Below are positions 42,240 through 43,633 of a stretch of DNA of 56,376 nucleotides, one piece after another (the stretch's first letter is position 1; every line of letters begins with the position of its first letter). The position numbers and the translations under genes are program-made. The DNA comes from a bacterium. Lineage in GTDB: Archaea > Thermoproteota > Nitrososphaeria > Nitrososphaerales > Gagatemarchaeaceae. The stretch lies in assembly GCA_027310575.1 (NCBI GenBank), contig DAIDAO010000013.1, positions 1-56,376 on the forward strand, read 5' to 3'. Below the pieces are notes generated by a model that saw only the letters and a program-made list of their open reading frames with translations, was not told where the DNA came from and made no database searches.

Positions 42240-43046
42240 TCAGCTGCCGCCGGAAATCCGATCGTACTCCGCAGATTCCAGTCTGACCGAAATCGAGGAG
42301 GCGTTCTCCTCTAGGTGGGAGACGTTTGCCGCCTTGGGGATTGCGACGACCTGCTCATGGCGGGTCACCCAGTTGAGCATGGCCTGAGCTGGAGTCATGT
42401 GGTACTTCTGCAGGACCGCCCCGGGAACGGAGCCGGAGATGCGGCCCCGCGCCAGAGGGCTGTAGGCGATCAGGGTGATCTTCTCCCTGGCGCAGTAGGG
42501 CAGAAGCTCGGATTCGACCTGCCTGTTCTCAAGCGAGTACTCCACCTGATTGGAGACCACCTCGTGGCGGGACAGAGCCGCTCTGGCGCCCTCTGTCTCC
42601 CTGACGCTGAAGTTGCTGACCCCTATGTATCTGGTGAGACCATCGCTGGCGAGCTTCTCCATCGCTGACATAGTCTCCTGGATTGGAACCTGAGGGTCGG
42701 GCCAGTGGATCTGGTACAGGTCGACGTAAGAGACCCCCAGCCGCTGGAGGCTCGCCCTGCACGCGGCGATGACGTCGTCATGGTGGAGGTGCCCAGGGGC
42801 CACCTTGGTGGCGATGAAGACCTTCTCCCTGACGCCTTTGATCGCGTCCCGCACGATTTCCTCCGACCTCCCCGAGGAGTAGGTCTCCGCAGTGTCGATC
42901 AGGTTCATTCCCAGCTCTATCCCCCTTCTGAGGGCCGCCACCTGGCTCTGGCGCTCTTCCGGGGTGTGATAGGCGCCGAACCTCCAGGTTCCCATGCCTA
43001 GGGTTGAGACCTTCTCCCCCGTCCTTCCGAGCGTGCGGTACTCCAT
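42240..43046 (-). CDS. aldo/keto reductase
   Basis: A 268-residue AKR. Catalytic residues: Asp and Tyr in LIDTAETYSSG, Lys in IATKVAPGH, His in LYQIHWPDP. The NADPH site is AIPKAANVSHLEENA. It is related to the AKR at 37474-38298: both share the LYQ(V/I)HWP and GVSNF segments. It converges on the 42117 microprotein with its stop 4 bases beyond. The start ATG at 43046 is followed by a long typical N-terminus (EYRTLGRTGEKVSTLGMGTW). Substrate unknown. Confidence 0.9.
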   Translation of the reverse strand: MEYRTLGRTGEKVSTLGMGTWRFGAYHTPEERQSQVAALRRGIELGMNLIDTAETYSSGRSEEIVRDAIKGVREKVFIATKVAPGHLHHDDVIAACRASLQRLGVSYVDLYQIHWPDPQVPIQETMSAMEKLASDGLTRYIGVSNFSVRETEGARAALSRHEVVSNQVEYSLENRQVESELLPYCAREKITLIAYSPLARGRISGSVPGAVLQKYHMTPAQAMLNWVTRHEQVVAIPKAANVSHLEENASSISVRLESAEYDRISGGS

Positions 43047-43094
43047 GGTGGGGAGGTCGATTGCCCAGCTTTAGACATTCACGGCGAGAAAGGT

Positions 43095-43101
43095 GATAAA
43101 C
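43095..43101 (+). promoter_or_regulatory. TATA box of the tRNA-Thr gene
   Basis: GATAAAC lies 25-31 bases upstream of the first base of the tRNA at 43126. Confidence 0.55.
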
Positions 43102-43125
43102 CGAGCTCGGACCGAGCAGTGGCGT

Positions 43126-43238
43126 GCCGCGGTAGCTCAGCCTGGCTAGAGCGTGTGCCTTGTAAGCGCAAGTCATGAAAGCACAAGGTCGAGGGACCGA
43201 AATGCCAGCGAAGAGGCACGGAAAGCCCTCCCGCGGCT
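43126..43238 (+). tRNA. tRNA-Thr (anticodon UGU) with two introns
   Basis: Acceptor GCCGCGG pairs with CCGCGGC and discriminator T. D-arm GCTC/GAGC. Anticodon stem TGTGC/GCACA with loop CTTGTAA, so the anticodon is TGT. A 15-base intron at 43165-43179 sits at the canonical 37/38 site. A second, 23-base insertion (43202-43224) lies in the T-loop at 59/60; its TGCC/GGCA stem and 3-base bulges fit a relaxed bulge-helix-bulge. Removing both gives 75 bases with a 7-base T-loop ACCGAAG. The T-stem GAGGG/CCCTC is perfect. The loop lacks the usual T54 and T55. Confidence 0.85.
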
Positions 43239-43249
43239 CTTTTCACATG

Positions 43250-43633
43250 CTAGCTGCCGCTCTTCCTGAGCACTTCGAAGACGTCGCGGATCGTGGCTGC
43301 GAGATACGGGCCGTACTCCTCGTCGCTGAACTCGACGACGTCCACCCTGCCTGTCGCTGACGCGACCTTGTAGCTCAGGAGGTGGTAGCAGGTCTCTTCC
43401 CTCCCCCCGAGGACTCGGAAGTAGAAGTTGCTGCAGGAGCAGTACGGCTTCTCGGGGTCGATGAACTCGTCCCCCAGCCGCCCCACGACCGTGATTACCC
43501 TCCTTCCGCTCGGCAGGAACCTGCACTCCTTGACTCCGCCAGCCAGCACTGCGTCCACCGCCCTGTCGAGCTTCGTCCCGTACTTCTCGAACCCGGGCAG
43601 CTTCCCCTTGATGGCCTCTCGCTCTTCAGACAT
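43250..43633 (-). CDS. SWIM zinc-finger protein
   Basis: A 127-residue protein with C-S-C-S-N-F-Y-F-R...C-Y-H, the SWIM pattern C-x-C-xn-C-x-H (about 64-85), in a small domain preceded by FLPSGRRVITVVGRLGDEF. SWIM domains bind nucleic acid or protein, and in eukaryotes and archaea SWIM proteins such as Sws1 assist recombinases. The gene overlaps the start of the Dpo4 gene by 8 bases and is transcribed with it, pointing to a DNA damage-related role, an inference from linkage. Confidence 0.75.
   Translation of the reverse strand: MSEEREAIKGKLPGFEKYGTKLDRAVDAVLAGGVKECRFLPSGRRVITVVGRLGDEFIDPEKPYCSCSNFYFRVLGGREETCYHLLSYKVASATGRVDVVEFSDEEYGPYLAATIRDVFEVLRKSGS

What the first reader, a model, noticed from the sequence alone, without database searches (positions are those of the whole stretch)
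43126..43238. tRNA-Thr(UGU) with two introns and an abnormal T-loop
Seen: after removal of a 15-base intron at 37/38 and a 23-base intron at 59/60 a perfect cloverleaf of 75 bases remains, with T-loop ACCGAAG. T54 and T55 are replaced by A and C. The 5' part of the loop (ACCG) pairs only partly with the intron's CGGA, whereas the normal TTCG would pair fully. Known: T-loop introns occur in some Thermoproteota; loss of U54 and U55 is rare because they form the elbow with the D-loop.
Basis: partly seen in the sequence, partly recalled or inferred. Interest (0 to 1): 0.68.

Follow-up and report, generated by a model that had tools for sequence, protein, structure and literature searches.

The report
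Archaeal threonine tRNA lacking conserved elbow uridines
This is a real, probably essential threonine tRNA gene with two small introns, and its final form lacks two uridines that almost all tRNAs use to hold their elbow together; relatives show this is inherited and conserved in one archaeal lineage rather than a sequencing error.

Summary
Window 43126-43238 is the only tRNA-Thr(UGU) found in a 97%-complete genome, with a 15-nt intron at 37/38 and a 23-nt intron at 59/60. The spliced 75-nt form has T-loop ACCGAAG (A54, C55). Assembly error and hidden normal splicing are rejected. A relative whose neighbouring protein is only 67% identical has exactly the same 75 exon bases, while its introns differ in sequence and length. 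A 3' relic in a third genome repeats ACCGAA...G. C55 has a matching G inside the T-loop intron. In 20 T-loop introns from this family, exon bases 55-57 pair with the intron almost without exception, whatever the exon sequence. The intron does not cause the abnormality: intronless tRNA-Thr genes of the same genus, and of other Nitrososphaeria and MAGs titled Bathyarchaeota, have A54. C55 with T54 is common too. Best reading: a functional tRNA with an initiator-like A54/A58 elbow in a lineage without detectable TrmY. Held literature describes A54/A58 in eukaryotic tRNAs and says it is not seen in archaeal tRNAs.

The parts
43126..43238 (+). tRNA-Thr(UGU) gene with two introns
   Evidence: (114 bits, model includes this sequence)
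43126..43164 (+). exon 1 (positions 1-37)
   Evidence: identical in G029
43144..43145 (+). G18 G19 of the D-loop, retained
43161..43163 (+). anticodon TGT (UGU)
43165..43179 (+). intron 1 at 37/38, 15 nt, relaxed bulge-helix-bulge
   Evidence: 14-15 nt introns at the same site in orthologues
43180..43201 (+). exon 2 (positions 38-59)
   Evidence: identical in G029
43191..43195 (+). T-stem 5' strand GAGGG, pairs with 43226-43230 CCCTC
   Evidence: GAGGG/CCCTC changes with GCGAG/CTCGC in relatives
43196..43197 (+). A54 and C55 in place of U54 and U55
43202..43224 (+). intron 2 at 59/60, 23 nt; hairpin 43203-43206/43215-43218; 43219-43221 CGG pairs with exon 43197-43199 CCG
43225..43238 (+). exon 3 (positions 60-73), G60, discriminator T73, no encoded CCA
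43087..43103 (+). conserved promoter-like stretch AGAAAGGTGATAAACC upstream of the tRNA
   Evidence: similar stretch upstream of orthologues (by eye)
43250..43633 (-). neighbour gene, 127 aa, SWIM-like CxC...CxH by eye; marks the orthologous locus
   Evidence: found beside tRNA-Thr in most relatives; no Pfam match
42240..43046 (-). aldo/keto reductase gene on the other side

Best explanation
It is a functional tRNA-Thr(UGU), probably the only reader of ACA and ACG codons in this archaeon. The splicing endonuclease (EndA) removes both introns through bulge-helix-bulge structures; at 59/60 the exon bases 55-57 pair with the 3' end of the intron. The mature T-loop really is ACCGAAG. It most likely still folds as a T-loop: an A54/A58 purine pair replaces U54/A58, as in eukaryotic initiator tRNA, with a purine at 60, while G19-C56 is kept and G18 faces C55. 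Shown by sequence: gene structure, conservation, exon-intron pairing, and A54 in intronless relatives. Inferred: splicing, the elbow geometry, and lack of the usual modifications at 54/55.
For: Only full tRNA-Thr(UGU) in the genome, and no tRNA-Thr(CGU) among its listed hits; ACA+ACG make 61 of 125 Thr codons in seven window genes. All 75 exon bases are identical in G029, against introns of 11/15 and 16/23 and flanks of about 45/63 and 40/62, and a neighbour protein 67% identical. The G023 relic repeats ACCGAA...G. tRNA-Thr(UGU) with A54 and no T-loop intron: G032 ATCGAAG, G002 ATCGAGT, G009, G013, G016 and the replacement gene of G023 ATCGAAT, G011 ATCAAAT. tRNA-Thr(CGU) with A54 and no intron: ATCGATG in six genus members. 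Exon-intron pairing in 20 T-loop introns: 55 20/20, 56 20/20, 57 19/20, with C55-G, G55-C and U55-A/G; intron shuffles p about 1.5e-4 on 12 distinct combinations. T-arm fold z -3.25. EndA catalytic subunit, 184 aa, present. TrmY (m1-pseudouridine 54) not detected in any of 61 genomes. A54/A58 with a purine at 60 is known from eukaryotic tRNAiMet and tRNA-Ala (PMC7566577; PMC7912444); here 15 of 18 named A54 loops have G60 against 3 of 84 T54 loops.
Against: No RNA data, so splicing and the mature sequence are not observed. A54 faces A in the intron helix, so the bulge-helix-bulge is imperfect, and the 37/38 intron has only a relaxed motif. The A54-G60 association is counted over related sequences. 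A Pus10-like gene is present, so the uridine-modifying pathway is not simply lost. The neighbour-gene tree does not join G000 and G029 as sisters (many forks unresolved), so the shared ACC state may be inherited, transferred or repeated.
Confidence: 0.85

Rival explanations
1. Assembly or sequencing error changed TTCG to ACCG.
For: The window comes from a fragmented assembly of 61 contigs.
Against: The same 75 exon bases occur in G029 and the same T-loop in the G023 relic; C55 has a G partner in the intron; A54 is found in many other genomes.
Confidence: 0.01
2. A different splice choice gives a normal T-loop.
For: Splice sites in A runs can slide by a base.
Against: Every prefix-plus-suffix choice of 7 bases from the 30-base loop lacks TTCRANY (worked out); orthologues without the T-loop intron have A54 directly.
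Confidence: 0.02
3. The gene is a decaying pseudogene or a dispensable copy.
For: RF00005 scores it only 17.6 bits unspliced.
Against: Perfect stems, the only UGU gene found, 75/75 exon identity with G029, heavy ACG use. A true relic exists in G023 and looks different: its 5' half is missing.
Confidence: 0.05
4. The encoded A54/C55 are corrected after transcription, for example by C-to-U deamination at 55.
For: Archaeal C-to-U editing exists at position 8 in Methanopyrus (own knowledge).
Against: No test was run for an editing enzyme; C55 pairs with the intron G; A54 could not become U by known deamination.
Confidence: 0.04
5. Relaxed constraint: the gene works, but the elbow is genuinely weakened and tolerated, with no compensating fold. 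This competes only with the elbow part of the best explanation.
For: Position 58 also varies in tRNA-Thr of Nitrososphaeria (G58 and T58 in many TTC loops; G54 with G58, C54 with T58); AGCAGAG in G025 tRNA-Thr(CGU).
Against: Exact exon conservation between G000 and G029; G18, G19, C56 and A58 all kept in this gene.
Confidence: 0.25

Closest known systems
Eukaryotic initiator tRNA-Met and A34-tRNA-Ala with A54/A58 pair (PMC7566577, PMC7912444)
   Same: A54 in place of U54, A58 kept, purine at 60
   Different: U55 is replaced by C here, while U55 is described as conserved; G15-C48 is normal here, unlike tRNA-Ala; and this is an archaeal elongator tRNA-Thr. PMC7566577 says such pairs are not seen in archaeal tRNAs.
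Archaeal tRNA introns at 59/60 removed by EndA (reviewed in PMC4090602)
   Same: Position, size, bulge-helix-bulge shape, more than one intron per gene
   Different: Exon part of the central helix is ACCG rather than TTCG, and the intron changed to match at 55
tRNA-Pyl and type II mitochondrial tRNAs without the U54-U55-C56 motif (PMC7609411)
   Same: Loss of conserved T-loop uridines
   Different: Those also lose G18/G19 and C56; this gene keeps all three
Caldiarchaeum tRNA-Thr(GGU) locus disrupted by an integrated element (PMC3293823)
   Same: Compare G023 here, where an insertion leaves a tRNA-Thr fragment
   Different: G023 carries a LAGLIDADG-like ORF, no integrase was seen, and a 3' fragment is left. 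This concerns the relative, not the window gene.

Membership tests
Archaeal intron-containing tRNA-Thr(UGU) | Complete cloverleaf with UGU anticodon after splicing | tested here: met
Archaeal intron-containing tRNA-Thr(UGU) | Orthologous to tRNA-Thr(UGU) of relatives by position | tested here: met
   Same neighbour gene in most relatives; model hits
BHB intron at 59/60 | Central helix between exon 54-57 and intron, two bulges | tested here: met
   3 of 4 pairs plus hairpin, z -3.25; imperfect at 54
BHB intron at 59/60 | Cleavage by EndA and ligation | not testable with these tools
   EndA catalytic subunit present; no RNA data
Canonical T-loop TTCRANY | U54 and U55 | tested here: not met
   A54, C55
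A54/A58 elbow of the eukaryotic initiator type | A54, A58, purine 60 in the sequence | tested here: met
   A54, A58, G60
A54/A58 elbow of the eukaryotic initiator type | U55 kept | tested here: not met
   C55
A54/A58 elbow of the eukaryotic initiator type | A54 and A58 paired in three dimensions | not testable with these tools
   no structure of this tRNA

The most novel reading that the evidence does not exclude
Elongator tRNA-Thr of Nitrososphaeria works with an elbow built without U54, and in this subclade without U55 either, so neither usual uridine modification is possible there; an A54/A58 pair and a G18-C55 contact replace the standard ones, and the T-loop intron changes in step with the exon.
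Probability: 0.55. Interest if true: 0.6.

Novelty: new variant of a known kind. Interest (0 to 1): 0.45.

Why it matters
U54 and U55 are treated as near-universal and as targets of conserved modifications. A lineage that replaces them in an essential tRNA while keeping G18, G19 and C56 offers a natural test of which elbow contacts and modifications are needed, and of how a T-loop intron and its exon change together. Standard tRNA finders missed the gene in the raw window, so such genes may be reported as missing.

Tried and rejected
ARAGORN and Rfam at gathering score on the raw window found no tRNA. An anticodon arm without intron (TGTGC CTTGTAA GCGCA) is possible in the window but not in G020 and others, so rejected. 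The G023 locus looked like a split tRNA at first (only a 3' half); reading it showed a complete replacement tRNA plus a LAGLIDADG-like ORF and a relic, so split tRNA was rejected. Loss of Pus10 as the cause was tested and not found. Paper searches for archaeal tRNA-Thr with A54 gave no report; only open-licence papers are searched, so a report elsewhere is possible. The neighbour-gene tree was too unresolved to count gains and losses.

Full report
What is there. The sequence at 43126-43238 reads GCCGCGG TA GCTC AGCCTGGCTA GAGC G TGTGC CTTGTA [AGCGCAAGTCATGAA] A GCACA AGGTC GAGGG ACCGAA [ATGCCAGCGAAGAGGCACGGAAA] G CCCTC CCGCGGC T, introns in brackets. ARAGORN and Rfam at gathering score find no tRNA in the raw window, but ARAGORN calls the spliced 75-mer tRNA-Thr(tgt). 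In the genome, 35 RF00005 matches at E up to 10 include this place at only 17.6 bits, because of the introns. A pattern for the 5' half and a covariance model made from orthologues find no second tRNA-Thr(UGU) in G000. No tRNA-Thr(CGU) appears among its listed model matches, although such genes score 58-75 bits in several relatives; the assembly is 97% complete, so absence is likely but not proven. In seven window genes ACG is 49 and ACA 12 of 125 threonine codons, so this gene should be needed.

Not an error, not a pseudogene. In G029, a different species of the same genus, all 75 exon bases are identical, while intron 1 matches at 11 of 15, intron 2 at 16 of 23 with gaps, and the 60-base flanks at about 45/63 and 40/62. 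The neighbouring protein is 67% identical. The exons are therefore held under selection, ACCGAAG included. A third genome, G023, keeps a 3' relic with the same ACCGAA...G. Acceptor and T-stem pairs change together between relatives (GCCGCGG/CCGCGGC to GCCACGG/CCGTGGC; GAGGG/CCCTC to GCGAG/CTCGC).

The intron does not cause the odd T-loop. tRNA-Thr(UGU) genes without a T-loop intron have A54 in plain sight: G032 ATCGAAG, G002 ATCGAGT, G009, G013, G016 and the replacement gene of G023 ATCGAAT, G011 ATCAAAT. tRNA-Thr(CGU) without a T-loop intron reads ATCGATG in six genus members, and tRNA-Thr(GGU) reads ATCGAAT in G020 and G003. In 115 parsed tRNA-Thr(UGU/CGU) genes from named public genomes, mostly Nitrosopumilus and other Nitrososphaeria with some MAGs titled Bathyarchaeota and others, position 54 is A in 18, G in 10 (two of these look misparsed, GATCGAT) and C in 3, and T54-C55 occurs in 12. 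In this genome tRNA-Thr(GGU) has TCCGAAT and tRNA-Phe CTCAAAT. Loss of both U54 and U55 is seen in G000, G029, the G023 relic, and as AGCAGAG in a G025 tRNA-Thr(CGU).

How it is spliced. Twenty T-loop introns at 59/60 were collected from this family, in Thr, Met, Tyr and Gly genes. Exon base 55 pairs with the intron in 20/20, base 56 in 20/20, base 57 in 19/20 and base 54 in 9/20. The partner changes with the exon: C55-G, U55-A or U55-G, G55-C. Exchanging introns between genes gives as many pairs in about 1.5e-4 of shuffles over 12 distinct combinations. The window's T-arm folds into T-stem, 3-bp central helix, bulges and a 4-bp intron hairpin at -14.1 kcal/mol, z = -3.25. The genome encodes an EndA catalytic subunit of 184 aa; Thaumarchaeota are reported to have the two-subunit type (PMC4090602). 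A second subunit was not found with PF01974, which may be too strict for it. Cleavage itself is inferred.

How the mature tRNA may hold its elbow. G18, G19, C56, A58, G15 and C48 are all present in the sequence. A54 can pair with A58 as in eukaryotic initiator tRNA and some tRNA-Ala, where a purine at 60 goes with A54 (PMC7566577; PMC7912444). Here G60 is present, and in the public set 15 of 18 A54 loops have G60 against 3 of 84 T54 loops; relatedness inflates this. C55 opposite G18 is an inference. C55 cannot be pseudouridylated and A54 cannot carry m1-pseudouridine. TrmY is not detected in any of 61 genomes of the order, while it is found in three of the four archaeal controls. Pus10-like proteins are present in most of them, so loss of that enzyme does not explain the change. 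Absence of TrmY may have loosened the demand for U54; this is a suggestion only.

Where it comes from. The genus therefore lies in Nitrososphaeria (Thaumarchaeota), among uncultured lineages. The neighbour gene is also held in the tRNA-Thr(UGU) locus of a MAG titled Ca. Gagatemarchaeum (L115).

What is known. Introns at 59/60 and several introns per gene are known in archaea (PMC4090602), and noncanonical introns are reported from Thaumarchaeota (PMC3218864). [quoted passage not shown] I found no report of archaeal tRNA-Thr with A54 in the open-licence library, which misses most subscription papers. I therefore rate it a new variant of a known kind.

Noticed in passing
L073 666-1935 (G023:C88:62165 to about 63435): An insertion at the tRNA-Thr(UGU) locus: a complete new tRNA-Thr with a D-arm intron and an A54 T-loop without intron, a 306-aa minus-strand ORF with a weak LAGLIDADG_3 match (E 4e-4, below cut-off), and the 3' relic of the old tRNA. 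Looks like a homing-type element that replaced the tRNA gene; similar replacement-type tRNAs sit in G009, G011, G013 and G016 without a relic.
   Followed up: partly
L045 (G000:C3:1189-1286 -): tRNA-Gly(GCC) with an intron at 53/54 in the T-loop.
   Followed up: no
L261 (G000:C14:85881-86038 +): tRNA-Tyr with several introns, one at 59/60 with T-loop CTCAAA...T (C54) whose intron pairs fully.
   Followed up: partly
L048 (G000:C55:29227-29318 +): tRNA-Phe with a D-loop intron and T-loop CTCAAAT (C54); the same C54 in relatives.
   Followed up: no
L264 (G025:C17:18823-18911 -): tRNA-Thr(CGU) with T-loop AGCAGAG: A54, G55 and G58.
   Followed up: no
L268 and L269 (G003, G004): Met-type tRNAs with T-loops TGCGAA...T (G55) and CTCGAA...T (C54) and matching introns.
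   Followed up: partly
L091-L209: tRNA-Thr(CGU) of Nitrosopumilus and relatives often change 54 and 58 together: GTCGGAG, GTCAGAG, GTCACAG, CTCGTAT.
   Followed up: partly
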